Assembly (NCBI RefSeq): GCF_030697375.1
Contig: NZ_JAUYQD010000018.1
Coordinates: 186,001-250,000, forward strand
Direction: 5' to 3'
Length of the DNA stretch: 64,000 nucleotides
Origin: Rhodoferax sp.
GTDB taxonomy: Bacteria > Pseudomonadota > Gammaproteobacteria > Burkholderiales > Burkholderiaceae_C
Below are positions 7,981 to 60,583 of this stretch, one piece after another. Numbering within the stretch: the stretch's first letter is position 1; every line of letters starts with the position of its first letter. The notes beneath the pieces are model-generated. The model was not told the origin of the DNA and ran no database searches. It saw only the letters and a list, made by a program, of their open reading frames with translations. Both the position numbers and the translations under genes were made by a program.

Positions 7981-8058
7981 GGTGACCTCCGTTGTAAAAG
8001 TGGATATGGAATGCACACTTTACACGATACATTCCTGTGGAATTGAGCTTTACCCAAG

Positions 8059-8090: not shown

Positions 8091-8102
8091 CTTCAAGAGA
8101 GG

Positions 8103-8138
8103 TGGTGGCGGAAGCGGGAACCGAACCCGCGTCCGCAT
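8103..8138 (-). ncRNA. ssrA: 3'-end fragment of tmRNA gene (displaced attachment site)
   Basis: On the minus strand this reads GCGGAC, a T-arm GCGGG-TTCGGTT-CCCGC, the acceptor strand TTCCGCC, discriminator A and an encoded CCA. The GGACGCGGGTTC block just before the T-loop is a hallmark of tmRNA 3' ends. Upstream (8139-8420) I could not find the resume codon, a proteolysis tag ending in ALAA, or a 5' acceptor strand able to pair with TTCCGCC. I therefore read this as only the 3' part of ssrA, cut off by integration of the element to its right. The terminator follows directly. A divergent complete tmRNA cannot be excluded without covariance-model scoring. Confidence 0.65.
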
Positions 8139-8453
8139 ATCGAGACAAATGGTAACACGTGCCCGCAAAGGGCATGAAATCGAGAGTTTGGCCGCTTCCC
8201 CCTGAAGAGCGTTTTGCATTTCGTCCGCTGCGTATTCGGATGGCGACTGCTCGGCCAGTAGGTTTGTCAAACATCAGTTCGATTCCGCGATTCGCAATCG
8301 AACCCGCGTCCGCAATCCATCATTGCGCCGGGGCCGCTGTCGTCGTGGCCCCAACTTTCATGGCGAGCGCACTTGGCATCGTGGTTCACCTAATTCTACT
8401 CAACCACAAAATCATCATCAAATTGCTACAGACTTAAATGCAATATGCGACGC
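8139..8453. other. Non-coding left end of the element with a second core copy
   Basis: No convincing gene lies here; open frames across it on both strands have no ribosome site and run through the RNA-like sequence. It holds an exact second copy of the 16-base ssrA core (8299-8314), a 27-base dyad (8277-8303), and a GGGGCC/GGCCCC hairpin near 8330-8360. These features suit the end of an integrated element, such as an attachment-site arm or an older, decayed insertion. Confidence 0.5.
8277..8314. repeat. Second 16-base ssrA core fused to an inverted repeat
   Basis: Bases 8299-8314 (CGAACCCGCGTCCGCA) repeat 8122-8137 exactly, 177 bases away. The second copy runs into the dyad GTTCGATT-N11-AATCGAAC (8277-8303). 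Outside the 16 bases the two copies diverge on both sides. This is what a duplicated attachment core, or a relic of an earlier integration at the same site, would look like. Confidence 0.6.
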
Positions 8454-8496
8454 TTGACGTTGTGTATTGAGTCGTATAAACTCTGCTAAACAATAC
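8454..8496 (+). promoter_or_regulatory. Promoter and dyad operator of the defence operon
   Basis: TTGACG (8454-8459) is followed by TAAACT with a 17-base spacer, or by TATAAA with 15. The -10 region is covered by the dyad GAGT-N7-ACTC (8469-8483). A wider one, GTATTG-N21-CAATAC (8464-8496), spans the likely start of transcription. The WYL regulator gene begins 25 bases further on. Dyads placed this way are expected for autorepression by BrxR/CapW-type regulators. Confidence 0.6.
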
Positions 8497-8521
8497 CGAT
8501 AGACCATTAGAGCCATAGCAA

Positions 8522-9403
8522 ATGTCCAGCGACCAACTTTCAGTAATGACCCAATCGCAACGCGACCGCCTCGCGTTCCTTGAGTTGCGCCTGCGTTTCG
8601 TCGGGGAATTTCGCCGCCAGGACTTGGTGGAACGGTTCGGCATTCAGGCGGCAGCGGCAACCCGCGACATTGGCCAATACAAAGAGCTCGGCCCGCGCAA
8701 TCTTGACTACGACACCAAGCGCAAGGTTTACGTGCGCGCCGATTGGTTCCGCCCTGTGTTCGACTTTGCTGCAAGTCGCGTCCTCACATGGCTGTCGCAG
8801 GGATTTGGTGATGGCGAGCCGATGCGCGTCCGCCAGTTGGTGGCGTGTGAGGGTTCGGAGCTGTCGACCAATCTAGATCTCGAAATGCTGTCAGTACTGA
8901 CTCGTGCCATTCACAAGAAAGCAGCGGTCGAGATTTCGTATCGCGCACTGTCCAGCGGGTTAACTACCCGGGAGATCGTCCCGTTCGCCTTGGCCGACAA
9001 CGGTCAGCGCTGGCACGTTCGCGCTTTCGACCGCCGCAGCGGTGACTTCCGCGATTTCGTACTGACTCGAATTGCTGACGCGAGATCGGTTGCCGGTGTC
9101 GTGCAAGAGCACGAGACCTCCGATCAAGACATTCAGTGGAACCGGATCGCTGAGATTGAACTGGTTCCTCACCCGGCCAACGTTCAGCACCCCGACACCA
9201 TTGAAGCCGAGTACGGCATGGAAAACGGCGCGCTACGGATGCGCGTGCGCGCGGCAATGGCCGGATATCTGATGCGTCGCTGGAACGTGGATTGCACCGA
9301 AGACCACAGTCTCAAGGGTGCCGAATACCACCTCTGGCTGCGCAATCGCCAAGCGCTTTATGGCGTGACCAACCTCGTGCTTGCACCCGGGTACGAGGTT
9401 TAG
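8522..9403 (+). CDS. WYL-domain transcriptional regulator (BrxR/CapW type)
   Basis: A 293-residue protein with an N-terminal winged-helix (about residues 12-65, [27 protein letters not shown]), a WYL domain (about 125-190, with RWHVRAFD in the WYL position) and a C-terminal WCX-like part. This architecture is that of BrxR and CapW, which repress BREX and CBASS operons and are thought to release DNA on binding a nucleic-acid ligand. It is the first gene of a six-gene operon and ends 14 bases before the helicase start. Dyads overlap its promoter. I infer that it controls the whole operon; the ligand is unknown. Confidence 0.88.
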
Positions 9404-9417
9404 GAGAAGGCTTACAA

Positions 9418-12942
<3,525 letters not shown>

Positions 12943-12954
12943 GGAAAACAAAAA

Positions 12955-15807
12955 ATGACCACCATTAAAACACCCAAAAAACTTATTGAAGTGGCTCTGC
13001 CGCTAGATGCGATCAACGTTGCAGCAGTCCGTGAAAAATCAATCCGCCACGGCCACCCGAGCACGCTTCATCTGTGGTGGGCGCGTCGCCCGCTAGCTGC
13101 TGCCCGTGCAGTCATCTTCGCCCAAATGGTAAATGATCCGGGCTATGAACGAGAACTCGGCCGAGGTGTGAACAAAGAGCGAGCAAAGATTGAGCGTGAG
13201 CGGCTTTTCGAAATCATGCGTCGGTTAGTTGAGTGGGAAAACACCAACGATGCTTCTGTCATTGCGGAGGCAAGGGCTGAGATCATGAACAGTTGGCGTG
13301 AAACCTGCGAATTGAATCGTAGTCACCCTCGCGCTAGTGAAATATTTAATCCTGACGTACTACCAGGATTCCATGACCCTTTTGCGGGTGGCGGCGCGAT
13401 TCCACTAGAAGCACAGAGGCTAGGCCTTCGCAGTCATGCAACGGATCTGAATCCAGTAGCTGTTGTTATAAATAAAGCCATGATCGAAATGCCCGCATTG
13501 TTTGCGGGGATGGCACCCATCGGCCCTTTGCATAAAAGCGATCAGCAAGTTAGTTTGACTATTGACTGGAGCGGCGCTCGAGGCCTCGCAGAGGATGTAA
13601 GACGCTATGGACTCTGGATGCGAGATGAGGCATTCAGACGTATCGGACATTTATACCCCAAAGTAGAAGTGCCAGAGAATTTGGGTGGAGGCGACGCAAC
13701 GGTTATCGCATGGATTTGGGCTCGAACCGTAAAGAGTCCCAATCCCGCTTTTTCTCATGTCGAAGTTCCACTAATCTCGACCTATATTCTTTCTAGCAAG
13801 GCTGGTCGGGAAGCCTATGTTAGGCCCGTAGTTTCTGGCGATAGTTACAGCTTCGAAGTCGTACTTGGCATTGCGACCGATGAGGCTAGGGCTGGAACTA
13901 AGTCGGGTGGGCGCGGAGCGAATTTCATTTGTATCGTTTCTGGCACACCAATTAGTGGCGACTACATCAAGGCGGAGGGTGTTGCTGGTCGAATGGGTTC
14001 TAGGCTTTTGGCTGTAGTAGCTGACGGACCGCGAGGCAGGTTGTTTCTGGCGCCTTCAGTGGAAATGGAAACAGTTGCAAGGTCAGCTGTTCCACAATGG
14101 AAACCGGGTGGAGAGGTTCCTGCTCGCCTAACTGGTGGGACTTGCGTTCCATATGGGATGAAGGAGTGGGGGGATCTATTCACTTCGCGTCAACTTGTAG
14201 CGCTCAATACATTCGTCGATGTAGTTCAAGAAGCACGAACCAAAATCCGAGCTGATGCTATCCAGGGCGGTCGTATCGATGACGGCAAATGCCTGAACGA
14301 TGGAGGAAGTGGAGCGACTGCTTATGCAGATGCAATTTCTGTTTATCTGGCTTTTCTTATAGATCAAGTTGCTAATCATTCATCTACGATTTGTGGATGG
14401 AACCATCCAAACACGCAACTACGAAGTGTTTTCTCCAGACAAGCACTTCCGATGACTTGGGATTTTGCGGAAACCAATGTTTTCTCAACATCATCGGGTA
14501 GCTTCAATAATCTCTTTGAGCGACAAATCAAAGGCTTTGAAGCACTTGGTCAAAAGCCGCCAGGTGTAGTAATGCAGGCGGATGCGCGGAGTCAGACTGT
14601 TTCAGCGGATAAAGTAATTTCGACAGACCCTCCGTACTACGACAACATCGCATACGCTGATTTGTCAGACTTTTTCTATGTTTGGTTAAGAAGAAGTCTT
14701 AGGACTGTATTTCCAGAAATATTCAGTTCTATGGTGGTGCCAAAGGCAGAGGAGCTTGTTGCCACCGCATATCGGCATGGAGGCAAAGACTCTGCGGAAA
14801 AGTTCTTCCTTGAAGGAATGACTGACGCCATGGGAAAGCTGGCGGCGCAGGCACATCCCGCGTTTCCCGTCACTATTTATTACGCATTCAAACAATCGGA
14901 TTCAACCGATGTTGTAGGTACAAACAGCACTGGATGGGAAACATTTCTTGAAGCTGTGCTGCGCGCTGGATTTGTATTGACTGGCACGTGGCCGATGCGC
15001 ACAGAAAAGGAAGGTCGCTCTATTGGCAACGGTGCGAACGCCCTCGCTTCGAGCATCATCCTTGTTTGTCGAAAACGTGCAGAAGACGCCCCAACTGTAG
15101 GACGTCGAGAATTCCTTCGGGAACTTAACTCGATTTTGCCCGATGCGCTATTGGATATGACGCGTGGAGGTGTCAATTCACCGGTTGCTCCTGTTGACTT
15201 GAGTCAAGCCATTATTGGCCCCGGCATGGCCATTTTTAGTCAATACGCTGCAGTTCTTGAAGCTGACGGTAAACCGATGAACGTTCGCACAGCGCTTCAA
15301 CTCATCAATCGTTTTTTCGCCGAAGATGATTTCGATCACGCCACCCAGTTTTGTCTGCATTGGTTCGAAGGTCAAGGATGGGCAGAGGGAAAGTTTGGCG
15401 AGGCCGATGTGCTTGCCCGCGCGAAAGGTACGAGTGTTGCTGGCCTTCAAGATTCCGGTGTCGTAGAAAGTGGCGCGGGCAAGCTGCGGTTGTTGCGGTG
15501 GGCGGAACTGCCAAAGGATTGGTCACCTGAGGGCGACAATCGCACGCCCGTGTGGGAGGCCCTGCACCAACTAATCCGAGCGTTGAATCAGGATGGCGAG
15601 TCTGCTGCGGGCGCACTGCTGGCGCGCATGCCAGCTCGTGCCGAACCGATGCGTGCTCTGGCCTATCGCCTCTACACCCTTTGCGAACGCAAGGGCTGGG
15701 CAGAGGAAGCGCGCGCCTACAACGAGTTGGTCACCGCGTGGTCGAGCATTGAGCAAGCGTCTGCGGATGCAGGCATCCTTGGTTCGCAAACAAAACTGGA
15801 TATTTGA
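12955..15807 (+). CDS. DUF1156 DNA methyltransferase (COG1743-like)
   Basis: A 950-residue adenine/cytosine-N4-type methyltransferase. The N-terminal DUF1156 segment has [19 protein letters not shown]. The SAM-binding motif [10 protein letters not shown] is near residue 141 and the catalytic DPPY ([19 protein letters not shown]) near 559. Between them is a long insert, probably the target-recognition region. ATG lies 12 bases after the helicase stop. It probably marks host DNA so that the helicase/ATPase partners spare it, as family context suggests. Roughly 13.2-15.3 kb is clearly more AT-rich than the last 500 bases of the gene and its neighbours, a sign of replacement of the recognition part by recombination. 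Confidence 0.9.
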
Positions 15808-15821
15808 TTGGGGAGATGAAG

Positions 15822-18656
15822 ATGACTCTAAAACCTTGGCGTGAAATCGCCGTCCCGCATGAAGATGTCCTGAAGGGCACATTCCAGCAAGCCGAGTTCG
15901 CAGCGGATTTGTCGCGCGTCCACGACGGCACGGCGACGCCGGAATACCAGAACCCTGCACTGTTCTTCCAGCGTACATTTATCACCGAAGGCATGCGCTT
16001 GCTGCTCGATTCCGTGGTGAAGCGATTGTCCGGCAAGGGTGGCGATCCGGTCATTCAGTTGCAAACCGCATTCGGCGGCGGCAAGACCCACACGATGTTG
16101 GCGGTTTACCACCTTGCCAAAGGCGAAGCGCAAGCCAGTGACTTGCCGGGTGTGCCTGCCATTCTCGATGCGGCCGGGGTGACTGAAATGCCGCGCGCAC
16201 GGATTGCAGTGCTCGATGGCATCAAGTCATCGCCTAACCAGCCATCGATTCGGCAGGATGGTGATACAAAACAAGCCATCCGCACCCTTTGGGGCGATCT
16301 GGCGTGGCAGTTGGGTAAGGCCGAGGGCTACGCCCTGGTGGCGGATGCGGATTCTTCAGGCACATCCCCCGGCAAGGCTGTGCTCGAAACACTGCTCAGT
16401 CGCTATGCGCCTTGCGTGATCCTGATCGACGAGTTGGTAGCCTACGTGCGCCAATTTGAAGAGGGCAAGACACTGACCGGCGGCAGCTTCGATTCCAACT
16501 TGAGCTTTGTACAGGCACTGACCGAAGCACTGAAAGCCGTGCCTACCGCTGTGTTGTTGGCTTCGTTGCCAGAGTCGGACAAGGAAGCAGGAAGCCAGCG
16601 CGGCGTAAAAGCACTGGCAGCGCTGGCGCACTACTTCGGGCGCATTCAGGCGTTGTGGAAACCGGTAGGTACCGAGGAGGCGTTCGAGATCGTCCGTCGT
16701 CGCCTGTTCAGCAGCATCAACGACAAACTGGCTGCCGAAACGGTTTGTCGTGCCTTTGCTGATTACTACACGGCCAACAGCGATGACTTCCCGCGCGAGA
16801 CCCAAGAGAGCCGATATTTCGACCGATTGATGCACGCCTACCCGATCCATCCAGAGGTCTTTGACCGGCTGTATGAGGACTGGTCGTCGCTGGATAACTT
16901 CCAGCGTACCCGTGGTGTGCTGAAGTTGATGGCCAAGGTCATTCACCGGCTTTGGGACAAAAACGACAAAGACCCATTGATCATGCCGGGGAGCTTTCCG
17001 CTTGACGATGCAAATACCCGCAACGAGGTGATTTACTACCTGCCGCAGGGCTGGGACCCGGTGGTCGAACGCGATATCGATGGCGAGCGTGCCGAAACCA
17101 CCGAGATTGAAAATAAAGATACGCGCCTTGGTAGTGTGCAGGCCTGCCGCCGCTCAGCGCGGGCCGTATTTCTTGGTAGTGCGCCCACCACGGCAAACCA
17201 GATGGTGCGCGGCCTCGAACTGGAGAGGATTGTTCTGGGCGTGGCACAGCCGGGCCAGCAGGTCGGCATTTACAAGGACGCGCTGCGTCGCTTGAGCGAC
17301 CGCCTCCACTACCTGAACAGCGGTAATAACCGCTTCTGGTTCGATACCCGCCCGAACCTGCGCCGCGAAATGGAAGAGCGCAAGCGCCGCTTCCAGGACA
17401 AGGAAGACGTGTTCCCGGCCATCCGTGATCGTGTGCAGAAGAGTTTTGCCACCGGCGTGTTTGGCGGCATCCACGTTTTCACGGCCAGCGGCGACGTTCC
17501 TGATGATTGGCAGCTACGGCTCGTTGTGCTGCCGCCCGACGCTGCGTTTAGCCGCAGTGGCCAGAGCCTTGCCATCGAGCGTGCGACTGAGATTTTGAAG
17601 GCACGTGGCGATCAGCCGCGTTTCAAGCAGAACCGGTTGATCTTTCTTGCCGCCGACTACGACAGCGTGAGCCGTCTGAAGGATCAGGTGCGGTCAACAT
17701 TGGCGTGGCAATCAATCGTCATCGACATCAAGGAGATGAAGCTCAATCTCGATCAGTTCCAGTCCCGACAGGCCAGCAAGAGCTTTGAGGATGCGAACGA
17801 TGCCCTGCGCCGCATGATCCGTGAAACCTACAAGTGGATGGTTGCGCCAATGCAGGAGGCCCGTCCCGGCAAGGGGCTGTCCGAAATTCAGTGGGAGCAC
17901 TTCCAGGTCAATCCGGGCGCGCAGAACCTGTCGCAGGAGATTGAGCGCGTATTGAAGGAAAACGAACTCCTGATCACCGAGTGGGCACCCGTCCACTTGA
18001 CCAAGGTGCTGAAAGACTGGTTCTGGAAGGACGACAGCAAAGACACCAGCGCACTCAACGTGTGGCAGCAAAGTTGCCAGCAGCTCTATCTGCCCCGTAT
18101 CAAGGACGACACGGCGTTTCAACACACGATGGCGGTTGGTGCAGAAAGCCGGGATTTCTTCGGTTTCGCCCAAGGCAAGGAAGATGGTCGCTATGTTGGG
18201 TTCAGTTTCGGCAAACGCACGTCGTTGTTCCTAGACTCGTCGCTGCTGCTGATCGAGCCGGTCGCTGCTGCCGGATACGCCGAGGCACAAAAGGCGGCTG
18301 ATGACGCCGCGCGGCCGACACCGGTCTATCCAACTGCCAGCGACACAGGCGACAAGCCGCAGCGTGCCGAGGATTCGGGCAAGCCGCCAATCTATCCCTC
18401 CGGCGATGCTGCGGCTCCACAGCCAGCAAAGAAGCAGTTCTACGCCAGCATCGAACTCGATGCGATCCAGGCCAAGAAACAGTTCGCCGATTTGGTTGAT
18501 GAGGTCGTGCTGCAGTTCACATCGCGACCGGGCGTGAAGGTCAAGATCGCCATCGAAATTCAGGCTGAATCCGCTATTGGATTCGACGACGGCATGCAGC
18601 GTGCGGTGAAGGAGAATTGCAATGTATTGCGGTTCAAGAACGCGGAGTTCGAATAA
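15822..18656 (+). CDS. DUF499 AAA+ ATPase (COG1483-like)
   Basis: About 944 residues. Walker A ([12 protein letters not shown]) is near residue 87 and the Walker B-like [12 protein letters not shown] near 200. A Pro-rich linker near residues 830-870 ([11 protein letters not shown]...[10 protein letters not shown]) leads to a C-terminal beta/alpha domain. An open frame begins at 15804 inside the methylase stop, but the Met at 15822 has GGGGAG at good spacing. DUF499 proteins are constant partners of DUF1156 methylases in defence islands; their biochemical role is not established. Here it is followed after 29 bases by the CD-NTase. GC content is high, like the helicase and unlike the next two genes. 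Confidence 0.88.
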
Positions 18657-18685
18657 TAGATGAGCAGAATGGAGGCGATGTGGCT

Positions 18686-19603
18686 ATGGAATCTACCAAA
18701 ATAAAAATGTATCCCCACGAAAATCTTTTACGTGACTGGGCAAAGCCGCCGACCACAACAGAAGATCAACGTTGTTCGAACGCTGAGAATGTCGTTCGGA
18801 ATGCCATCAACGCCTTTCCCGGGTTAAAAAATCATGACATCGAAGTATTTACTCAGGGGTCGTATCGAAATGGTACCAATGTTCGAAAAGAGAGTGATGT
18901 AGATATTTGCGTTTGCTGTAAAGATGTATTTTTCAGCGAATTGCCGTCGGACATGTCTTGGTCTAATGCCGGTATCGTAGATGCTGACTATACGTATATT
19001 CAGTTTAAGGACGATGTAGGAAAAGCGCTTAGGAATTATCTTGGTGACCAAGCCGTAAAAAGAGGAAAAAAAGCATTCGATCTGCATGAAAACACATACC
19101 GCGTCGATGCTGACGTAGTGCCAGCATTTGAGCATCGTCGTTACTACGTACAAAATGGGCAATTGGCTTGGCTATCGGGAACAGAATTACATCCGGATGA
19201 TGGTGGTCGAATTATTAACTGGCCTCATCATAATTACGAAAATGGCACGGAAAAAAATCGACTAGCGAATACTCGATTTAAAAAGCTTGTGCGCGTTCTG
19301 AAAAATCTTCGGAATGTGATGGCTGATCACGGGATAGACGCGGCAGAACCTATACCGTCTTATCTCATAGAATGTTTGGTTTGGAATGTCCCGAATGATT
19401 TGTTCGGCAATGCCGAGTACGTTGATGATTTGCGTTCCGTTCTAATCCATTTGTATGAATATACAAAAGCCGATACAACATGCTTCGAATGGGGTGAAGT
19501 CAACGAATTGAAATACTTATTCCGGACTACGCAGCCATGGACGCGGGAAGTTGTAAATCAGTTCGTAATTTCGGCATGGAACTACGCTGAATTGGGAGGG
19601 TGA
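18686..19603 (+). CDS. CD-NTase (cGAS/DncV-like nucleotidyltransferase) of a CBASS
   Basis: A 305-residue cyclic-oligonucleotide synthase. The polymerase-beta core shows QGSYRNGT (Gly58-Ser59), the metal-binding pair Asp71/Asp73 in SDVDICV, and the third acidic residue in VDADVVPA (near 143). All catalytic positions are intact. CD-NTases make cyclic di- or trinucleotides on phage infection, which switch on an effector. The start at 18686 has GGAGG ten bases upstream; a GTG at 18680 is an alternative. The stop lies four bases before the Cap15 start, so the two are translationally linked. AT-rich base use sets both apart from the DUF499 gene. The product nucleotide cannot be told from sequence alone. 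Confidence 0.9.
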   Translation: MESTKIKMYPHENLLRDWAKPPTTTEDQRCSNAENVVRNAINAFPGLKNHDIEVFTQGSYRNGTNVRKESDVDICVCCKDVFFSELPSDMSWSNAGIVDADYTYIQFKDDVGKALRNYLGDQAVKRGKKAFDLHENTYRVDADVVPAFEHRRYYVQNGQLAWLSGTELHPDDGGRIINWPHHNYENGTEKNRLANTRFKKLVRVLKNLRNVMADHGIDAAEPIPSYLIECLVWNVPNDLFGNAEYVDDLRSVLIHLYEYTKADTTCFEWGEVNELKYLFRTTQPWTREVVNQFVISAWNYAELGG

Positions 19604-19607
19604 GGTC

Positions 19608-20234
19608 ATGCCAAACAGACTGCAAATTTCTATTTTCTTGTTTGTGGCTGCCGCTATCTGGGCGAGCTTATTGGTTATTGAGGGAGTTGCAGTTCAGTCG
19701 ACATGGGCGCGGCCATTTTCAACAGTTGTCGGCGTTCTAGTGCTTCTGCTATTGGCATTTGACCTTTGGCTTTGGAAGATTCCTTTGCTACAAGGCTGGT
19801 TTGTTTATCGTCCAAATATTCGTGGAACTTGGAGAATCCAATTGCAGAGCAACTGGATTGATCCAAAGACAAATCAAGGCATTCCTTCCATTGCTGCTTT
19901 TTTAGTGATTCGACAGACATTTTCAATGTTGAGTATGCGGCTACATACACCTGAATCGTCTTCCGAGTTACTCGGTGCTGAGATTACTAAAGCGTCTGAT
20001 AGCACTTTTCGCGTCTTGGGCATTTATAGAAACGAGCCGCGTTTATCGGTTCGGGATAGGAGCTCGATTCATTATGGCGGGCTCGTTCTCGATATTACTG
20101 ACGGCCAAGCGCTTGCTCTGTCTGGGCACTATTGGACGGACAGGAATACTTGCGGAGAAATCAGATCCATAGAAAGAAAACCGCAGATCTCAGGCAGTTA
20201 TGAGGATGCGAATCGATTATTCTCGATATCGTAA
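19608..20234 (+). CDS. cap15: Cap15-type membrane beta-barrel CBASS effector
   Basis: A 208-residue protein with two N-terminal transmembrane helices (about 5-27 and 36-60) and a beta-rich cytoplasmic domain from residue 70. This domain has the signature order of Cap15: RGTWRIQL, then LVIRQTFSMLSMRLHTPESSS, YRNEPR, HYGG, LSGHYWTDR and GEI. In known CBASS, Cap15 binds a cyclic dinucleotide, oligomerises and ruptures the inner membrane, killing the infected cell. It is paired directly with the CD-NTase, and no Cap2/Cap3 genes are present, so this is type I CBASS. Its 3' end overlaps the convergent lysozyme gene by 18 bases. Confidence 0.85.
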   Translation: MPNRLQISIFLFVAAAIWASLLVIEGVAVQSTWARPFSTVVGVLVLLLLAFDLWLWKIPLLQGWFVYRPNIRGTWRIQLQSNWIDPKTNQGIPSIAAFLVIRQTFSMLSMRLHTPESSSELLGAEITKASDSTFRVLGIYRNEPRLSVRDRSSIHYGGLVLDITDGQALALSGHYWTDRNTCGEIRSIERKPQISGSYEDANRLFSIS

Positions 20235-20666
20235 GGCTTCTGCATTTCGACGGGAGACAAGACCAGGTAGTCGTCGCCCTGCTGCCCAAACCCATTTCAA
20301 AAGCTCATCAGGTACTTCTTCGTGGGCACACCGATTTATTTGCTTCCGTAGCGTGGACCGTTGTAATGCTCCGGCCCCGAGGTTGAACGTAAACGATACC
20401 AATGCGTCGAACTGGCCGTCGGTCAGCGGCACACGGATCAGGCGCACAACCGCTGCTTCCGCAATCTGTGCGTCCAGGCGCAGGAGTTCGACGCCCTCTT
20501 CCTCAGAGATTCCATCCGAAAATCGAGCACGTTCCTTTGGCAAGACGACGTGACCGTATCCGATTGTCGGATAGCCCGCAGGGCAAATGTAGATCGTCGG
20601 ACTGAAACCCTCGAAGCGTTTGATAAGGCACAGTCCGACGTCAGTGATGTGCCGCATCTCAGCCAT
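20217..20666 (-). CDS. Phage endolysin, GH24 lysozyme
   Basis: A 149-residue muramidase of the T4/P21 lysozyme family. The catalytic triad follows E-X8-C-X5-T (Glu in KRFEGF, then Cys, then Thr before IGYGH); Cys replaces the Asp of T4 lysozyme, as in P1/P21-type enzymes. No signal-anchor segment precedes the catalytic domain, so export would depend on the holin. The start at 20666 overlaps the holin stop. It is the last gene of the lysis block and ends tail to tail with the Cap15 gene. Confidence 0.92.
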   Translation of the reverse strand: MAEMRHITDVGLCLIKRFEGFSPTIYICPAGYPTIGYGHVVLPKERARFSDGISEEEGVELLRLDAQIAEAAVVRLIRVPLTDGQFDALVSFTFNLGAGALQRSTLRKQINRCAHEEVPDELLKWVWAAGRRLPGLVSRRNAEALRYRE

Positions 20667-21725: not shown

Positions 21726-23567
21726 CTACAGGTAGTGACGTTCGACTTCGACGGTCTGGCGCACGGTCAGGCTTTCGCCCCAATCGGCAGCGATGCTGGT
21801 GGCACGCACCAGACCTCGCCAGTTGGTCGCGCCTTCGCCGACAGCGATCAGCAGCCCGGGATCGAGCAGCCCTACCGAATTCAGCATCGGCAGCTCCAGC
21901 GTGACCACGGCCTGCTTGCCGGTGTCGGCCAGGATCGCGCGGCCTCGCTCGCGTGCAGCGTCCGCGTGGGTGATCAGACCGTCAACCACCATCGGCGCGA
22001 CGGCGTCGCCTGCCGTGCCGGATCGGATGACGTGGCCGGTAATGCCCTGGCGTTCACCCGACACATACACCGCGTTAAAGGAAGGCTTCTCCTGCCAGCG
22101 CAGGTTCAGCGTCTTGACGATATCGATGGGCAACGACCGATCCGGTGGCAACGTCGCCCAGTTCCACGGCAATTCCGGATAGCGCGACTTGGCCACCAGT
22201 GTCTTGAGCCGGGTGTGTGCGTTGAGGTAACCGCCAACCGACTCAGCGATGTGACCGACGACGCCCATCGGGCTCAGGGACTGGTAGTTCCAACTGCCCT
22301 CGGGCACCAGCCAGTCCGGCAAGCGCCAGTCGAGGTTGAAACCGGTCACCAGTCCCGGCCGCGTGAGTTCCTGCTCGGCCAGTTGCCGCGCCGTGAAGGG
22401 CGATGTGGGTACGAACGAGCGCTTGGGAGCGTAGGGCTCGGCCAGATACGCCGCCAGCGACCGCCCTCGGATGCCAAGGCTCGACTGACCAAACTCGCGC
22501 CGCACGTCGAAGCCCTCAACCAGCATTACCCACGTCACGCCGTTGATGGTGATCTCGATCTCCACCGGCCCTGACGAGGTTGGCTCAATTAATTCCAGCG
22601 CAGAGTACGGCAGGTTGGCCGAGAATCCCCATGCCCACGAATCGGTGTCGATGCCGATCTGGATGCTTTTGACCGGGATGGGTTCGCGGCCCGGGAGCCG
22701 CACGACATTGACGGAGTTGCTCACGAAGTAGACCTTGAGAATGGGGACGCTGAAGCTTCCGCTCGGGCACGGGTGCGCGCCAAAGTCGAGCAGCAACAGC
22801 GGTCGCCACGCGACGCCAGCTCGGGTCGCGCGGCAGATGAAATCGAGATTAGGGTGGTACTTTGGCTGCGGTGGTTCGACGGGCGGATCGACCGGCAGGT
22901 GCGACTCGCCGAAACGCGGCTGGCGACCGATCTCCCACGGCAAACCCCAGCGTTTTGATTGCCAGATGCCGTGCGCGAATCCGAACTGCCAGCGCTTCGA
23001 TAAAGCCACTGCCTTTTGCCACGGCTGCAACTGATGGCTAGGGAATGGCACCAGCCAAACAAACGGGCTGACCACAGCATCGGCAAATGCTTCGCCCTCA
23101 CCCCAGTGCAAACCGAGTAGATCGTGCTTCGGCCACAACGGATCGAAGCGCTCTGTCGTCGCTTCAGCGATCTGCTCCGTGTTGTTCCAATGCGCGCGAC
23201 TGGCGTCGCGGCTGCGGACGTTCTCGCCGCTGCTTGATGCCAACGACGCGGTGGACTGCTGGCCGTGATCCCACGCAAGCGCAGTCGCACCTCGGTCGTG
23301 TCCAGTGTCACCCCAACCATCCTGCGTCGCCCTGGCTTGCCAGTCGGAGCGCTGCCAGTTGATCCTGCCACCGGCCTCGAGCGTGCGGTTCACGAGGTTG
23401 TTGTACGCCGCCCGAATATGGACGGTCGGCGGCGGCAACTGAATGCGGATCGTGGCGCTTGTGGCCTCGGGTGCCTCGCCGTTCTCCTGCTGCAATCCGA
23501 AGTTGAGATTGGTCGATCCACCGGCGGGAGGCGTCCATGCACCTTTGAAGTCCAGATCCAGGCCCAC
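21726..23567 (-). CDS. Phage tail tip/hub-like protein, 613 residues
   Basis: A large protein placed after the host-proximal tail genes. The N-terminal third is Gly/Ser/Thr-rich with Trp repeats; from about residue 280 it turns into a structured section (VPVKSIQIGIDTDSWAWGFS, then WVMLVEGFDVRREFG, IRGRSLAAYLAEPY). That second part resembles tail-hub (gpD/gp27-like) folds found in siphophage tail tips. Exact function is not certain, but its size and position in the tail operon make a virion role very likely. Confidence 0.65.
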   Translation of the reverse strand: MGLDLDFKGAWTPPAGGSTNLNFGLQQENGEAPEATSATIRIQLPPPTVHIRAAYNNLVNRTLEAGGRINWQRSDWQARATQDGWGDTGHDRGATALAWDHGQQSTASLASSSGENVRSRDASRAHWNNTEQIAEATTERFDPLWPKHDLLGLHWGEGEAFADAVVSPFVWLVPFPSHQLQPWQKAVALSKRWQFGFAHGIWQSKRWGLPWEIGRQPRFGESHLPVDPPVEPPQPKYHPNLDFICRATRAGVAWRPLLLLDFGAHPCPSGSFSVPILKVYFVSNSVNVVRLPGREPIPVKSIQIGIDTDSWAWGFSANLPYSALELIEPTSSGPVEIEITINGVTWVMLVEGFDVRREFGQSSLGIRGRSLAAYLAEPYAPKRSFVPTSPFTARQLAEQELTRPGLVTGFNLDWRLPDWLVPEGSWNYQSLSPMGVVGHIAESVGGYLNAHTRLKTLVAKSRYPELPWNWATLPPDRSLPIDIVKTLNLRWQEKPSFNAVYVSGERQGITGHVIRSGTAGDAVAPMVVDGLITHADAARERGRAILADTGKQAVVTLELPMLNSVGLLDPGLLIAVGEGATNWRGLVRATSIAADWGESLTVRQTVEVERHYL

Positions 23568-23573
23568 GGTTCA

Positions 23574-23972
23574 TCACTCGCTGATTTCGGCTAATTGCAC
23601 GTTGACCGCGCCACCTGCGAACAGGGCGAGCTTGGACAGTTCCACTTCTGCGCCACTGTCAGTCAGTCCGACATCCAGATCGGCAGCCCAGCGTTCGTCG
23701 CCGTCAAGCAGTCGCGCCCACGCTGCAGTGCCAGATCGGCGGCACAGCGCCTCGCCAATGGATGCGAAGGTCAGTTTCCCTGCGTCCAGACTCCACGTTG
23801 AGGGTTTCGGCAACCGAATTTCGACCAGCAGAATCTGCTCGGTAAGCAGTTCGCCAATGGCTGGTCGCGGGGCCGAGTAGATTCGCAATAGTCCGCCGGC
23901 AGCAGCCGAATCCAGTGCATTTCCAATCACTGCCAGCCGACTGTTTCTGATCGGCACAGACAAAGTGATCAT
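23574..23972 (-). CDS. Phage tail-region protein, unknown
   Basis: A 132-residue protein with regular hydrophobic/beta pattern and no recognised domain. The start overlaps the stop of the upstream gene (ATGA type), indicating translational coupling in the tail operon. It resembles other small tail-tip complex proteins only in size and place. Confidence 0.6.
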   Translation of the reverse strand: MITLSVPIRNSRLAVIGNALDSAAAGGLLRIYSAPRPAIGELLTEQILLVEIRLPKPSTWSLDAGKLTFASIGEALCRRSGTAAWARLLDGDERWAADLDVGLTDSGAEVELSKLALFAGGAVNVQLAEISE

Positions 23973-24451
23973 GGGTAGACCGTTGGCTCAGGCTTGACCC
24001 AATCGGCGATCACTGCGTTGAACTGACGCACGTAATCGTGAGCGAGCACAAAGTATTCGCGCGACGGGTCGAGAAAGTCGAAGCGGTACTGACCGTCCTT
24101 GCGCGACCACGCCTCGGCGACCAGCAGGCCCGTCAGCACATCGAACAAGCGCACCTTGCGCGCAGCGGGTGTGCCCTCGATGCTGACCTTGCCGGTGATA
24201 GCGCCGTTTCCCCAAAAGTCGCGTGGGCGCGAGCTTGGCATTTCACCGTGACGGGTCGGCGACACACCCTCGTGGCAGAACGACGCGTTGCGGGTGAGGC
24301 TGTCCAGCACCTGCGACGTCGACGGCCCTGAAATGCTCCCCGGTGCGCAGTGCGCCTCGTTGTGCAGGACGTGGCGCGAGGGCGCACCTGCGACTGCGCC
24401 GGGTGCTGTTCTGCTGAATGTGCCGACAAATTTCGGGATCTCGCCAGCCAT
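23969..24451 (-). CDS. Tail protein with carboxypeptidase-regulatory-like beta domain
   Basis: A 160-residue protein. The N-terminal 75 residues look flexible (Pro/Ser/Ala-rich). The second half (GAITGKVSIEGTPAARKVRLFDVLTG...WSRKDGQYRFDFLDPSREYFVLAHD) has the strand order of carboxypeptidase-regulatory-like or Ig-type domains, which phages often use as accessory adhesins. It overlaps the next gene by four bases. Confidence 0.6.
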   Translation of the reverse strand: MAGEIPKFVGTFSRTAPGAVAGAPSRHVLHNEAHCAPGSISGPSTSQVLDSLTRNASFCHEGVSPTRHGEMPSSRPRDFWGNGAITGKVSIEGTPAARKVRLFDVLTGLLVAEAWSRKDGQYRFDFLDPSREYFVLAHDYVRQFNAVIADWVKPEPTVYP

Positions 24452-24455
24452 CGCT

Positions 24456-25622
24456 TTAGTCCCACGGCCCGGTCAGATCGAAGGCCATCCTTGCGCCACC
24501 ACTGCTCTGCGAGCCGTTCACCACCAAGAGTTCACGCTGCGTCCCGTCGATGACGAAGCCCTGGTACTTCCACGGCTCCGGTGCGGGAATGGATTGCAGC
24601 GGGCACAGCAGGCCAGGCAGACGGCCGCGCAGCGACGGGCCGGTCTGTTCCTGAATCATCAGCGGCATCACGTAAATGCCGTTGTCGGCAGGGTTCGGAT
24701 AAGGGATGCCCGTCCAACCCAGCCCGGTGCCGCCGTTGGCTGCCGGTGCGCTGACCCACTGCGCATTGATGCGTCCACCCAATTGCGAGTAGCCGCGCGC
24801 AAGCCAGATGCCGGTGTTGCCGACGGCGGTGCCAACCGAGTAGACGTAATCCGCTACTTCATTCGACGCCGGGTCGCCCCAGTTGTAAATGAGATCGTAG
24901 TAACCGGCGATCACCGTGCCGTAGGCGTCACCAGCCTTGAATGACGGGAAATCACCGAAGAAATATGGCACGTAGCGGTTCGGATAGCTCTCGCTCCAGT
25001 TCACCGCCAGCCAGAAGCGCTTGCTGTCGCCCACCAGCACCCAAGGACGCGCCGTGGCGCTCTCGTTGTGCGCCTTGCGCCACCATGTCTCGGACTTGCC
25101 CGTGCCGTTGTCGATGTCGTTCAGCACCTCCCACATCTGCGCAAGCGCGGTGCGTGCTCCCCGGCCATAGTTGGCGTCACCGGTCAGTGGTGTCTCATCA
25201 ATGCGCAGGAACAGCCGATTGCCGGTCACGTCCTTGGCGCGGTAGACCGCTTTGTTCGCGCCGGAAAACGGCGACTCCCAATCGAGCGGCGCGACCTTGG
25301 CAGTGATTATGCCGGTCGCCGTTGTGGCCGGATCACCCGTCACGTCGAATTGGAAGCTGTTGGTGGTGACGTTCCGGATGCGCTTTTCGCCGTTGTAGGC
25401 TGTCTCGTTCGCGCTGGCAATCAGCACAGTGTCGCTGTCGCGGAAACCGTGACCGGCGTCTGCCGTGGCGGTCGCCACGTTCCCGACGCGCGTGATGCTG
25501 GTCAGTGTGCGCAGATTGAAGCCGTTGAGCAGGCACGCGTTGAGTACTGCGATCAGCGATCCGGCTTGTCCGGTGATTTGCGGTGCGCCGTTCTGGTTGG
25601 ATTGGTACCACTTGATGGTCAT
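24456..25622 (-). CDS. Phage tail structural protein, 388 residues
   Basis: A beta-rich protein with many Gly/Asn/Trp residues (GYYDLIYNWGDPASNE, GIPYPNPADNGIYVMPLMIQ). It lies between the 1,210-residue tail protein and the small tail-tip genes, with four to about 25 bases between genes. The N-terminus (MTIKWYQSNQNGAPQITGQAGSLI) recalls tail-fibre or receptor-binding components. No catalytic motif is seen. Confidence 0.6.
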   Translation of the reverse strand: MTIKWYQSNQNGAPQITGQAGSLIAVLNACLLNGFNLRTLTSITRVGNVATATADAGHGFRDSDTVLIASANETAYNGEKRIRNVTTNSFQFDVTGDPATTATGIITAKVAPLDWESPFSGANKAVYRAKDVTGNRLFLRIDETPLTGDANYGRGARTALAQMWEVLNDIDNGTGKSETWWRKAHNESATARPWVLVGDSKRFWLAVNWSESYPNRYVPYFFGDFPSFKAGDAYGTVIAGYYDLIYNWGDPASNEVADYVYSVGTAVGNTGIWLARGYSQLGGRINAQWVSAPAANGGTGLGWTGIPYPNPADNGIYVMPLMIQEQTGPSLRGRLPGLLCPLQSIPAPEPWKYQGFVIDGTQRELLVVNGSQSSGGARMAFDLTGPWD

Positions 25623-25644
25623 TGATTAGCTCCTGGGAGGTTGG

Positions 25645-28600
25645 TCAGCGGTCGATGTCGCCGCGAATCTGGATCTGAAAGGAATCGTTGGTCTGCGTCG
25701 CCGGGCCTTGCAGCACGGTACGGGCGACCCATACGGGGAAATTCGCTGCCGCCGTGTTGAAGCGCAGCACGTTGCCAGCGGCCCAGCCCGAACCCCAGCC
25801 TCCCGCCTTGAGCGTGAAGTACGGGGCGTGCGTCTCGGGGTTGGTCGGCGCGAGGTCGGCGGCGGTGTTACCGATGGCGATCTGTCCGACCGATTCGCCG
25901 ATCACCCGGAACTCGTTGGTGTTGGTGAAGATCAGCGCCCAGCGTTCCTCGATGGCCCCGCGATTGCTCACCGCCAGCGGATAGACCGTCTCGTTGTACT
26001 GAGCGATGGTGTTGGCACCAAGCCGGGAATCTTTCCACTCGCCCGTCCACGTCTGCTGGGCGAACAGCGTGTGTGCGCGCGATTGCAGATCGCCGATGAT
26101 CAGCGCCGACGACACGCGCGATTCCTGCGCCGGGTAGTCGTGCGTCAGTGGTCGGGTCAGGGTCAGGACACCGTTGATCTGGGTGTCGGAGATCAAGCCC
26201 ATGTCTTCGACGCGATGCTCGGCGCGCAGCGGTTCGATGAATCCGGCGATGTTCAGCGGCGTCTTGAGCGTGACGATGCCTGCGTCAAGATCGACGGTGT
26301 AGCGGTCGGCGGGCACCAGCTTGCCTTCGACATCCAGCACGCGCAGCGACGACAGCCGCACGCGCCCAACGTCCAAGACATATCCTGCCGTGATGTTGTT
26401 CGGGAACGGCGTCGATGCAGTGTGATGCACAACGGCCACATCGCCCGGACGGTAGATCGGCACTTGTCCGTCAAGCGGCAGACGCACCGGGTCGAGGCCC
26501 AGCACATCGGCGGACAGCGGCAGATAGGTGTAGGCCACCGCATTGAAACGGATGGTGTCGGCCAACACTGGCTGCGGCTTGAAGATCTGCCCGTTATTGA
26601 CCGCATCTGCGCTGTACCAGACTTGGGTTTCGTTGCCTTGGGCAGTCACGTAACGTCCGAAGCGCACGCGCACCACGCCGGTCTGATAGTCGACGTTGCC
26701 GATCATCCCGCTGGTGATGATCGTGCCGTCAGAATTCGCGGTTGCGGAAATCTGGCCACCTGTGAGCGGTGTCGCGCGAATTTGCAAACTACTCGGCCTC
26801 ACCGGCGCGGCAGGTACACGGAAGGTGACCTCATCGACCGGCTGGCCACCGAGCTCGGTGAGCAGCGACAACATCGACACCGCGTTGGCCGAACCCGGCT
26901 GCCAGACAGTCAGCAGCGCGCGGCCGGAGGCGTAGTCGATGGTGCCTGCCTGCGTCCCTGCGCCGGTATTGGCGTTGATGTCGGTCACCAGATTGCCGAG
27001 CCGGTCGATGTAGACCTTGCTGCCCAGCGCGAAACGGATGCTGCCGGGCACGATGCGCTCGGCGTAGCGATCGGTCAGATCGAGTTCAAGCTGGCTGAGG
27101 GTGACAGTTTCAGTTGCGCTGTTGGGTGTGTCGACTGCGCGGTACCGCACTTTCACATAGCCCGATTCGTCATACGGCATCAGGGCGCCTGCCGGGATGT
27201 ATTCCCAATGGTCGAACAGATAGCGGTAAGTCCGGGTGATGGTCGTACCTTGCGCCGTGACGGTGCGCGCTTCTCCGAGCAGCTTGTTGACATACACCGG
27301 CTTGGGGATCAGCACCGTTGCCTCGGGGCGAAAGGTGATCGCGCCTGTGACGTAGTCGATGGTGCCAGCCAGAGTACCGTCGAAGCTGCCACTTGCCGCA
27401 TTGGGGCCGCTGGCTTGATCACGCACGATCTTGATCGGGTCGATGCGGCGGCCCGGTGCCGGGATGAACTCTACGGTGGTCGAATACTTGGCCTCGTAGT
27501 CCTCGATCAGCAGGTTGAATTCGAGCTCGACCGTGTTCGGCCGGATGTCGGTTTGCGGCAGCGTCACGCTGATGGTGCCGTCGCCGCCACGCAGCGGGTG
27601 CGGGAAGTTCACCTCCTGCGGCGGCCCCCACTCGTAGTCGATGGAAAACGACGCACCGCCTGCGGGCAGCGCGTTGGGGCGGAACACCAGTTCGCCGCGT
27701 GCGTAGCGCACCATGCCTACTGCGTCGCCGCTGATCAGGCCGTGCCCGTTGTCAACGGCCAGCCGGTTATTGCTGCCGTCCGTCCAAGAAATCAGCACCG
27801 ATCCCGGCACAATGCCCGGATGCTCGACGGTATGGCGAACTGTCGGCGGCGTAACCGGCGCGGTCACGCGATTGAAATAGCTCGCGCCGGTACCCCAGGC
27901 GAACAGGATCGCCGTGCTGGCATCGGGCAGCGCGCCGGTGGTCAGGATGATTGACCCGGTCACATAGTCCAGCGTCGCTGCACCGAATGACGAGTCGGTG
28001 CCACGGATCGCACCGTCGCCCCGGTCGCGCAAGTCGTACCACTTGCCCTGCGCCATGAACGACACGATCAGTGCCCCCGGCTTGGGTGGTGGCGAGAGCG
28101 TGATGGTGTAGGCGTAGCCACGGTTCTCTTGCGAGATGGCAATCGCAGCCGTGTCCGCCACCCGGATCGGCGCACCTGCAGGCCGGAAGCTCACCTGAAA
28201 CCCACCGGAGAACCCCGGCGTTCCATCCTTGAACGCGATCAGTCCTCGCGCGTAGTCCACGGTGCCGATTACGTTGGTGCCGGATTTCAGCTCGCCAGCG
28301 ACATCGACAAACTCGTAGCCTGCGCCATTGATGCGCAAACTGCCGGGTACGCAGCCGTTACCCAGATACAGGTTCTTACCGCTGCTGACTTGCCCGGACG
28401 TGGTGTAGGTCAGTACGCCATTGCCGCTCTCCAGCAGGGGCACGGTCTGACCGGCAGCGGTCAGATCAACCAACGGCGTTTCCGACTGCGCCGACGGCAC
28501 CAACTGGCCGAACAGGCTGGGCACCTGCACGCGCACGTCCCCGACTTGCGTGTCGATCACCGTCGGCGCGATGCCGTAGTACACGGCGGCATTGGCAATC

Positions 28601-29277: not shown

Positions 29278-29673
29278 TCAGATCTCCATCAGTCGGAGGG
29301 TTAATCGGTAGAAATCGTTGTTGTGCCGCGCCGGGAAACCCGTCACCGGCTCGGCCTCGATGGCTGTCTCGTGATGGCGAAATGCCACGGTGAAGACGCG
29401 ACCATCGGTGAGCGTCAGTTCGAACTGACGGCTCGGGAGGGTGGCCCAGCCATACAGCGTGTTCACTGTCTCGCGGGTGACCCATGCCATGTCGGCGCTG
29501 CCCACCAGCGTTAACGGTCGCCCCTTCTGGCGGGCGGCAGACTCGACCAGCAGCGCGCCGGTCAGCAGGTAGGAAACCGCCGCCACTGCTGGCGTCCACG
29601 CATGTTCGTCAGACCAAAGGAGGTCATCGGGCAGCGCCACAAGAGCGTTGTCCGCAAGGTTTTTCAATTGCAT
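29278..29673 (-). CDS. Phage tail-assembly region protein
   Basis: A 131-residue protein (MQLKNLADNALVALPDDLLW...) lying just after the tape-measure gene and abutting the 1,210-residue gene. In siphophages this place belongs to small distal-tail or tail-tip assembly proteins. The C-terminal half is predicted beta strand (RQFELTLTDGRVFTVAFRHHETAIEAEPV). No family is recognised. Confidence 0.6.
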   Translation of the reverse strand: MQLKNLADNALVALPDDLLWSDEHAWTPAVAAVSYLLTGALLVESAARQKGRPLTLVGSADMAWVTRETVNTLYGWATLPSRQFELTLTDGRVFTVAFRHHETAIEAEPVTGFPARHNNDFYRLTLRLMEI

Positions 29674-29696
29674 AAGGGATCACAAAGCCCGGCTCA

Positions 29697-33806: not shown

Positions 33807-33808
33807 TT

Positions 33809-35042: not shown

Positions 35043-35062
35043 TGCTGTCCTTTCCTGATTCA

Positions 35063-36497: not shown

Positions 36498-36502
36498 CGG
36501 GG

Positions 36503-37809: not shown

Positions 37810-37811
37810 GG

Positions 37812-38192: not shown

Positions 38193-38193
38193 T

Positions 38194-39441: not shown

Positions 39442-39450
39442 GGGAATCTC

Positions 39451-41563: not shown

Positions 41564-41565
41564 GG

Positions 41566-42075: not shown

Positions 42076-42120
42076 GGATGAAACTCCTTATAAAAAAACA
42101 AAAAGAAAGCACAGTGGTGC

Positions 42121-54615: not shown

Positions 54616-54625
54616 GGTCATCCCC

Positions 54626-55264: not shown

Positions 55265-55269
55265 TGCGA

Positions 55270-60571: not shown

Positions 60572-60583
60572 AATGTGACCCAG

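What the first reader, a model, noticed from the sequence alone, without database searches (positions are those of the whole stretch)
8454..20234. One operon joins a DUF1156/DUF499/SNF2-helicase defence set with a minimal CBASS
Six plus-strand genes are spaced by 14, 12, 14, 29 and 4 bases: WYL regulator, SNF2 helicase with DUF3883 end, DUF1156 methylase, DUF499 ATPase, CD-NTase and Cap15. No promoter-sized gap lies between them. DUF1156, DUF499 and SNF2 proteins are known partners in defence islands; CD-NTase plus Cap15 is known type I CBASS. Having both on what looks like one transcript suggests a two-layer system: modification-guided DNA attack first, membrane-rupture suicide second, perhaps with DNA breakdown products or ATPase state feeding the CD-NTase. 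The usual extra partners of the DUF499 set (DUF3780, HerA-type ATPase, PLD nuclease) are absent, so CBASS may replace them.
Basis: partly seen in the sequence, partly recalled or inferred. Interest (0 to 1): 0.88.

Follow-up and report, generated by a model that had tools for sequence, protein, structure and literature searches.

The report
Prophage Hma operon with trailing CBASS
A virus lodged in a bacterium's chromosome carries one tightly packed run of immune genes in which a known DNA-modification defence called Hma is followed by a small suicide alarm called CBASS; close relatives carry other defences in that place, so the alarm looks like a swappable cassette.

Summary
The six genes, their order and spacings (14, 12, 14, 29, 4 bases) are confirmed. 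The first four are a WYL regulator and a complete, already named Hma system (HmaA, HmaB, HmaC by PADLOC), not a partial DUF1156/DUF499 set. The last two are an intact type I CBASS: a CdnE cyclase whose lid residues predict cyclic di-UMP, and Cap15. The operon lies in an apparently complete serine-integrase prophage, against the endolysin gene. In 80 surveyed genome loci, Hma operons often have inserts between A and B (42 of 53 measurable), between B and C (48 of 73), or a coupled gene after C (20 of 75). Thirty cargo proteins from 18 loci were profiled; they include Septu, Thoeris, TIR, GmrSD and PsyrT. Cargo families keep their slot (112 of 114) although occupants change often on the HmaC tree. 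CBASS after HmaC was seen only here (0 of 136 other loci), and two relatives with 96-99% identical HmaA and HmaC carry other cargo. So CBASS is exchangeable, probably co-transcribed cargo; direct biochemical coupling to Hma is not supported. Embedding in Hma is already in print; the trailing CBASS, prophage setting and slot habit are the new parts. Nothing was bench-tested.

The parts
8412..8435 (+). Candidate operator: TCATCATCA element, conserved upstream of WYL in related Hma operons
   Evidence: Alignment of 14 upstream regions; perfect ATCAnnnTGAT in 6 of 14 (mononucleotide shuffles: mean 0.05, max 1 of 14 in 500 rounds), but not in the window; TCATCA or TGATGA in 8 of 14, window included (mean 1.2, max 6)
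8454..8482 (+). Promoter-like site TTGACG-17-TAAACT; the other two + strand sites of the scan lie inside hmaA and hmaB
   Evidence: pattern TTGACn-N16-19-TAnnnT in 9 of 14 WYL upstream regions, shuffle mean 0.17, max 2
8522..9403 (+). WYL-domain regulator, 293 aa
   Evidence: Pfam WYL 50.8 bits over cut-off 21.8
9418..12942 (+). HmaA, SNF2-type helicase with NOV_C (DUF3883) end, 1174 aa; GAGKT 132, DEAH 230
   Evidence: PADLOC HmaA 2132 bits; motifs
12955..15807 (+). HmaB, DUF1156 DNA methylase, 950 aa; FAGGG 143, DPPY 558; residues about 400-550 (300-550 against L055) are the least conserved, a possible target-recognition part
   Evidence: PADLOC HmaB 1636 bits; identity profile and motifs
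15822..18656 (+). HmaC, DUF499 P-loop ATPase, 944 aa; FGGGKTH 84-90, ILIDE 200-204
   Evidence: PADLOC HmaC 1580 bits; motifs
18686..19603 (+). CdnE-type CD-NTase, 305 aa; QGSY 57, DVD 71, DAD 141; lid residues N178, N183, Q283-x-W285; GGAGG at 18671-18675
   Evidence: PADLOC Cyclase E=1.8e-121; phmmer E=4.7e-83 to solved 7x4f; positions; sequence
19608..20234 (+). Cap15 effector, 208 aa, two N-terminal hydrophobic segments, then the Cap15 receptor domain
   Evidence: Pfam PF18153 62.5 bits over 31.2; PADLOC 2TM effector E=5e-71; hydropathy
20217..20666 (-). Prophage endolysin, converging on and overlapping cap15 by 18 bases
   Evidence: PHROG 7 endolysin E=2e-47
21726..44259 (-). Prophage structural block: tail proteins, tape measure 29697-33806, major head protein 36805-37899, portal 39451-41001, terminase large subunit 42121-44259
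   Evidence: PHROGs
50030..56478 (-). Prophage replication and recombination genes: primase, Cas4-type exonuclease, Sak4-like annealing protein
   Evidence: PHROGs
61432..62829 (+). Integrase, serine-recombinase type by its match to DNA invertases, at the far end of the prophage; the intact tmRNA follows at contig positions equal to window 63994-64380
   Evidence: PHROG 95 integrase and PHROG 125 DNA invertase; tmRNA
8103..8163 (-). tmRNA 3'-end-like fragment at the probable left end of the prophage; not identical to the intact tmRNA
   Evidence: cmscan tmRNA 20.3 bits, below the gathering score 47; alignment

Best explanation
A prophage carries a complete Hma defence operon (WYL regulator, HmaA, HmaB, HmaC) whose last position, directly after HmaC, has been filled by a type I CBASS cassette (CdnE plus Cap15). 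One WYL-linked promoter at 8454 most likely drives all six genes. Inferred mode of action: in the lysogen the WYL protein holds expression low. HmaB marks resident DNA, and HmaA and HmaC act against unmarked incoming DNA, by analogy with other methylase-helicase-ATPase defences. When infection proceeds, DNA damage signals relieve WYL repression, as reported for CapW/BrxR relatives. CdnE, triggered by a phage product, makes a cyclic dinucleotide, predicted cyclic di-UMP, that opens Cap15 in the inner membrane and kills the cell. The two halves are co-regulated but biochemically independent: the CBASS is exchangeable cargo, like Septu, Thoeris, TIR and other modules in sister operons. Shown by sequence: gene content, intact motifs, prophage neighbourhood, cargo differences between near-identical operons. 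Inferred: co-transcription, repression, messenger, killing, anti-phage effect.
For: Complete Hma by PADLOC. CdnE and Cap15 motifs present, lid residues as in LpCdnE. Phage genes to the right, endolysin abutting cap15; endolysin-like genes in the fetched flanks of 7 of 80 genome loci and 6 of 36 viral-contig loci; 8 of 10 genes scanned beside Hma in relatives matched a phage tail or endolysin family, two of them (L135, L056) only as second-best match. Nearest relatives L036 and L055: HmaA 98.5 and 98.3%, HmaC 98.8 and 96.2% identical, HmaB 74.2 and 68.9%, different cargo; homologous DNA ends at 18656 and 18652, the HmaC end. GC: HmaC 58.4%, CdnE 43.0, Cap15 45.5. Genome loci: inserts over 250 bp in 42 of 53 A-B and 48 of 73 B-C gaps; coupled ORF of at least 150 aa after C in 20 of 75 (at least 100 aa in 28). 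Slot fidelity 112 of 114, permuted mean 71.5, max 81. At least 18 changes of A-B occupant among 39 loci. Promoter pattern upstream of WYL in 9 of 14.
Against: No RNA data; the 29-base gap is larger than those inside Hma, and a promoter inside the 3' end of hmaC is possible. The promoter scan found fewer consensus sites than shuffles give (4 against 5.8), so absence of a CBASS promoter is weak evidence; it also found terminator-like sites on the + strand inside hmaA, hmaB and cap15 (7 in all on both strands, shuffles 14.2). The perfect operator repeat is absent in the window. HmaB too has lower GC (51.5%), so low GC is not special to CBASS. Cargo is partly inherited with the backbone. The left prophage end is not proven. 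The messenger is predicted from lid residues only. Hma's own mechanism is unknown.
Confidence: 0.75

Rival explanations
1. Integrated two-layer machine: Hma action on phage DNA directly produces the trigger of the cyclase, so CBASS has become the effector arm of this Hma.
For: Tight spacing on one strand; both halves intact; a WYL protein of a kind reported to sense single-stranded DNA could link DNA attack with CBASS expression (passages of PMC13373217).
Against: Junction unique in the sample: 0 of 136 other loci with a CD-NTase, 0 of 26 more, 0 of 21 other CdnE-like loci with Hma. HmaA and HmaC at 96-99% identity occur with other cargo in two relatives. CdnE and Cap15 occur without Hma genes in the 16 kb fetched from G146 and G169 and, on a Vibrio plasmid, after a helicase that matches HmaA over 57 residues only.
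Confidence: 0.1
2. Chance neighbours: a self-contained CBASS inserted after HmaC in a defence-rich prophage end and transcribed from its own promoter inside hmaC.
For: Sharp GC step at the junction; relatives without Hma exist; junction seen once.
Against: 29-base gap with a GGAGG at 18671-18675 and no consensus promoter on the + strand from 14512 to 20800. The position after HmaC is used by other defence cassettes, several with 4-base overlaps and some shared between loci, such as Thoeris in L055, L090 and L135.
Confidence: 0.12
3. Decaying leftover: the operon is a silent relic in a defective prophage.
For: No functional data; the left attachment site is not clean.
Against: Six open frames with motifs present; structural, lysis, replication and integrase genes of the prophage are present.
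Confidence: 0.03

Closest known systems
Hma system (helicase-methylase-ATPase), PADLOC 2021, PMC8565338
   Same: Three genes HmaA, HmaB, HmaC in order on one strand, full-length profile matches
   Different: Led here by a WYL gene and followed by CBASS; beside phage genes
Hma-embedded candidates (HEC) and guilt-by-embedding (Payne 2024 preprint, known here only through passages of PMC12111858, PMC12988326 and PMC12255303)
   Same: A second defence shares the Hma operon
   Different: HEC genes lie between Hma genes; CBASS here lies after HmaC, and the A-B and B-C gaps hold only 12 and 14 bases
Type I CBASS with CdnE and Cap15 (LpCdnE, PMC10442399; Ssc-CdnE03, PMC10686824)
   Same: Two-gene cyclase-effector pair; lid residues N, N, QxW as in LpCdnE
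   Different: Appended to an Hma operon behind a WYL-led promoter; 43-45.5% GC after a 58.4% GC gene
WYL regulators CapW/BrxR (PMC9122601; PMC13373217)
   Same: WYL protein encoded at the head of a defence operon, with conserved promoter-side sequence
   Different: Heads Hma rather than BREX or CBASS alone; its binding site and ligand are untested

Membership tests
Hma | HmaA, HmaB and HmaC all present as neighbours on one strand | tested here: met
   PADLOC 2132, 1636 and 1580 bits; gaps 12 and 14 bases
Hma | Helicase, methylase and ATPase motifs present | tested here: met
   GAGKT and DEAH, FAGGG and DPPY, FGGGKTH and ILIDE
Hma | Protects against phage | not testable with these tools
   Needs phage challenge
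CBASS type I | CD-NTase with catalytic G-S and three acidic residues | tested here: met
   QGSY 57, DVD 71, DAD 141; that these are the catalytic residues is recalled
CBASS type I | One effector and no ancillary Cap2/Cap3 or HORMA/TRIP13 genes | tested here: met
   Neighbours are HmaC and the phage endolysin
CBASS type I | Cap15: two transmembrane segments plus barrel receptor | tested here: met
   Pfam PF18153 over cut-off; two hydrophobic peaks within residues 4-31 and 32-62; fold not modelled
Cyclic di-UMP CdnE (LpCdnE group) | Lid 1 Asn and (R/Q)xW lid 3 | tested here: met
   N178 and Q283-P-W285 by alignment to 7x4f; rule from PMC10442399
Cyclic di-UMP CdnE (LpCdnE group) | Makes cyclic di-UMP | not testable with these tools
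   Needs LC-MS
Hma-embedded candidate (HEC) | Gene lies between Hma genes | tested here: not met
   CBASS follows HmaC
DISARM / BREX / DUF1156-DUF499-DUF3780 set | Best match to DrmD/BrxH helicase, DUF1156_MTase or DUF499 models of those sets | tested here: not met
   DrmD 411, DUF1156_MTase 82.5 and DUF499 162 bits against 2132, 1636 and 1580 for the Hma models
CapW/BrxR regulator | WYL domain, first gene of a defence operon | tested here: met
   Pfam WYL; position
CapW/BrxR regulator | Inverted-repeat operator and repression released by single-stranded DNA | tested here: inconclusive
   Perfect short repeat in 6 of 14 upstream regions but not in the window; binding not testable

The most novel reading that the evidence does not exclude
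Hma operons are a modular immune chassis with three cargo slots (between A and B, between B and C, after C) under one WYL-linked promoter. Cargo families move between chassis yet land in the same slot, and HmaB's central, probably target-recognising part is exchanged with them. The last slot is a docking place for signalling suicide modules (Thoeris, TIR, now CBASS), and prophages spread the loaded chassis, so a lysogen gets a first line and a matched fallback in one delivery.
Probability: 0.37. Interest if true: 0.72.

Novelty: new variant of a known kind. Interest (0 to 1): 0.5.

Why it matters
Defences embedded in Hma are already used to find new systems, but why operons nest them, and whether chassis and cargo cooperate, is to my knowledge open. 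Here an Hma operon ends in a module with a well-understood read-out (cyclic dinucleotide, membrane rupture), and near-identical sister operons end in other modules. That allows a direct test: same chassis, different last module. The slot habit of cargo families (112 of 114) despite repeated exchange also asks for a mechanism, such as recombination through the flanking hma genes or a need for translational coupling.

Tried and rejected
Considered and dropped: DISARM, BREX or DUF1156/DUF499/DUF3780 membership (Hma models match better). A clean prophage att duplicate: no shared 14-base word between 7501-8650 and 60001-64000, one 11-base word between 7001-8650 and the tmRNA side, and the left fragment differs from the intact tmRNA, so the left boundary stays inferred. 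An empty site in family members: the left-flank DUF2726 protein has relatives in 15 of 40 genomes, own genome included, but in the two cases where I compared contig and position, G413 and G422, they are not beside tmRNA. Isolated phages: no HmaC or CdnE match at E<=1e-5 in 50,697 phage records, so the prophage link rests on this window and on genome and viral-contig loci. A viral-contig scan with the CdnE protein found nothing. A viral-contig scan with the tail protein gave 4 loci, not analysed further. A search of phages with a tail-region protein found 34 records, all under 60% identity, best listed 38.0%. Whether trailing cargo prefers operons without embedded cargo was looked at by eye only; no claim is made. 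Structure prediction and fold search were not used. The 2024 embedding preprint is not held; whether it already lists CBASS or trailing cargo is unknown to me.

Limits of the survey: the 80 genome loci are the best-scoring of 444 relatives, so they lean towards the window's Hma. The 136 loci include distant HmaC relatives (down to 25% identity in viral contigs) and repeats of one site (L035 and L056, L037 and L074; L136 probably L070). ORFs were called by length, not by a gene finder. Cargo identities come from representatives: 30 proteins of 18 loci were scanned with PADLOC, 20 of them also with Pfam; other cluster members were assigned by BLAST clustering. Six of the ten (L058, L084 second gene, L098, L137, L091, L072) and two of ten (L036 first trailing gene, L088) had no PADLOC match. 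The upstream-region test used 14 of 23 loci with a WYL match, window included; shuffles were mononucleotide. The tree is FastTree with 26 of 78 inner branches drawn open. A first count of occupant changes pooled an untyped 570-aa family with HEC-05 and counted L094, which has two A-B families, once; one search keeps the family apart and leaves L094 out of the A-B count. Rows with rare, mixed or unassigned occupants were left out: 39 of 54 rows used for A-B and 53 of 74 for B-C.

Full report
WHAT IS THERE. PADLOC profiles match the middle three over their full length as HmaA (2132 bits), HmaB (1636) and HmaC (1580). That is the complete Hma system, named in 2021 (PMC8565338, passages read: a three-gene operon, 1,638 instances, 26 phyla, frequently with Septu type I). 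DrmD, DUF1156_MTase and DUF499 models of other sets score far lower (411, 82.5, 162 bits).

THE CBASS. The CD-NTase matches PADLOC Cyclase PDLC00801 (E=1.8e-121) and, among solved structures, best the cyclic dipyrimidine synthase 7x4f (E=4.7e-83). Catalytic residues are present (QGSY 57, DVD 71, DAD 141) and the three lid positions are N178, N183 and Q283-P-W285. PMC10442399 (passages) gives lid 1 Asn and the (R/Q)xW motif as determinants of pyrimidine choice, with LpCdnE having Asn at lids 1 and 2, in operons with Cap15. The window protein has the LpCdnE set, so cyclic di-UMP is predicted. Cap15 has two hydrophobic segments and a receptor domain over Pfam's cut-off. Another CdnE-Cap15 pair is triggered by a phage RNA and makes a cGAMP (PMC10686824, passages), so an RNA trigger is plausible here, by analogy only.

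SETTING. Genes from 20217 onwards are those of a tailed phage: endolysin, tail, tape measure, major head protein, portal, terminase, primase, exonuclease, annealing protein and an integrase with DNA-invertase similarity at 61432-62829. The intact tmRNA lies at contig positions equal to window 63994-64380; a weak tmRNA 3'-end match lies at 8103-8163, left of the operon, but is not a copy of the intact one. The operon therefore most likely belongs to the prophage; the left boundary is inferred. Cap15 and endolysin overlap by 18 bases. Endolysin-like genes in the fetched flanks were found in 7 of 80 genome loci and 6 of 36 viral-contig loci. Of ten genes beside Hma in relatives that I scanned, eight matched a phage tail or endolysin family (two of them as second-best match), one a QueC-like family filed under phage auxiliary genes, one a phage family of unknown function. 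Against this, no isolated phage record holds HmaC.

CARGO SURVEY. HmaC relatives: 33 of 399 genomes of the order, 23 of 398 of the phylum, 80 loci kept of 444 in genome contigs, 36 in viral contigs. In the 80 genome loci the A-B gap exceeds 250 bp in 42 of 53 measurable cases and the B-C gap in 48 of 73; an ORF of at least 150 aa starts within -33 to +60 bases of the HmaC stop in 20 of 75 (at least 100 aa in 28); both internal gaps are closed in 9 of 53, as in the window. In viral contigs: 6 of 10, 11 of 16, and 9 of 24. Typed cargo: A-B slot Septu (PtuA, PtuB), HEC-09 (NYN domain), HEC-08; B-C slot HEC-02, HEC-05 (GmrSD), PDC-M61, Ppl, PsyrT; trailing slot Thoeris (ThsA and ThsB typed in L055, cluster members in L090 and L135), TIR, PDC-M41, PDC-S20 and others, eight of the scanned proteins without PADLOC match. 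In the genome set, 18 cargo families with three or more members hold 114 proteins, 112 of them in the family's main slot; permuted labels give a mean of 71.5 and a maximum of 81 in 2000. Shared descent explains part of this: on the HmaC tree the A-B occupant changes at least 18 times among 39 loci (shuffled mean 22.6; 3 of 500 shuffles as low) and the B-C occupant 20 times among 53 (mean 25.2; 2 of 500). So cargo is partly inherited, yet exchanged often, and the slot is kept through the exchanges.

THE JUNCTION IS UNIQUE IN THIS SAMPLE. A CD-NTase profile built from the window and six relatives finds no CD-NTase in 136 other loci with HmaC relatives at E<1 (75 of the 80 genome and 24 of the 36 viral loci have at least 700 bp after HmaC) and none in 26 phylum-level loci with about 1.5 kb flanks. 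In reverse, none of 21 other CdnE-like loci from the order and phylum searches has an Hma gene in the fetched stretch, and 7 of them have a Cap15-like gene; several of these are weak CdnE matches. In G146 and G169 CdnE and Cap15 lie in 16 kb without Hma genes; on a Vibrio plasmid the pair follows a helicase that matches HmaA over 57 residues only.

MOSAIC EVIDENCE. L036 and L055 share with the window the promoter region, WYL, HmaA (98.5, 98.3%) and HmaC (98.8, 96.2%), but HmaB is only 74.2 and 68.9% identical, lowest (28-54% per 50 residues) around residues 400-550, just before DPPY558. L036 carries Septu in the A-B slot and an untyped trailing trio; L055 carries HEC-08 and Thoeris. Homologous DNA ends at 18656 and 18652, the end of HmaC. 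The order FAGGG, variable part, DPPY fits an amino-methylase with an exchanged target-recognition part (class recalled, not from a call); PADLOC's paper called HmaB an m5C enzyme. GC drops from 58.4% in HmaC to 43.0 and 45.5% in CdnE and Cap15; HmaB is also low at 51.5%. I read the CBASS as a recent, exchangeable arrival.

CONTROL OF EXPRESSION. A promoter-like TTGACG-17-TAAACT lies at 8454-8482. The spaced pattern occurs upstream of WYL in 9 of 14 Hma operons tested (mononucleotide shuffles: mean 0.17, maximum 2) and ATCAnnnTGAT in 6 of 14 (mean 0.05, maximum 1), the latter not in the window; L036 and L055 are close kin of the window. No consensus promoter lies on the + strand from 14512 to the end of cap15, but the whole scan found no more sites than shuffles. 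WYL regulators of the CapW/BrxR type repress immune operons until they bind single-stranded DNA (PMC13373217, passages) and bind inverted repeats (PMC9122601, passages). I infer, and have not shown, the same here, with CBASS brought under that control.

WHAT IS KNOWN AND WHAT IS NEW. That defences are embedded between Hma genes, Septu among them, and that HEC systems can confer phage resistance, is in print (as cited in passages of PMC12111858; PMC12988326; PMC12255303). In library searches none of the rows listed (15 of 1,269, 15 of 15, 11 of 11, 14 of 14, 12 of 12) has a title or listed abstract start that describes CBASS after Hma; full texts were not read for this. The original preprint is not held, so priority cannot be settled. 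New as far as these calls show: CBASS as trailing Hma cargo, its prophage setting, the slot habit of cargo under repeated exchange, and the differing central part of HmaB in near-identical operons. Verdict: known parts in a new arrangement, and a good test object for whether nested defences cooperate.

Noticed in passing
window 45696-46979 and 46976-48568 (-): Two adjacent prophage genes both match the same DNA methyltransferase family and ParB-like families (phrog_498 best for both), a tandem pair.
   Followed up: no
L036:12725-15185 and the trailing genes of L063: A three-gene trailing module (221, 318, 268 aa) shared by two Hma operons; of the two genes scanned in L036, one had no and one only weak PADLOC matches; a candidate new defence.
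   Followed up: partly
L088:12829-13992 and L091:12817-14226: A trailing cargo family overlapping the HmaC stop by 4 bases, with no PADLOC match and, for L088, no Pfam match.
   Followed up: partly
window 8122-8137 and 8299-8314: A 16-base piece of the tmRNA-like 3' end occurs a second time nearby; may be a remnant of an earlier integration.
   Followed up: partly
L118:6530-9981: PsyrT-like gene with a 452-aa partner in the B-C slot of Hma in Pseudomonas fluvialis; the same pair in L119.
   Followed up: partly
window 5460-6986 and 7002-7796 (+): Protein with response-regulator-like (just under cut-off), DUF3369 and HD domains, then a DUF2726 protein, just left of the prophage.
   Followed up: no
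phage collection: HmaC has no match in 50,697 isolated-phage records although prophage-like contigs carry it.
   Followed up: no
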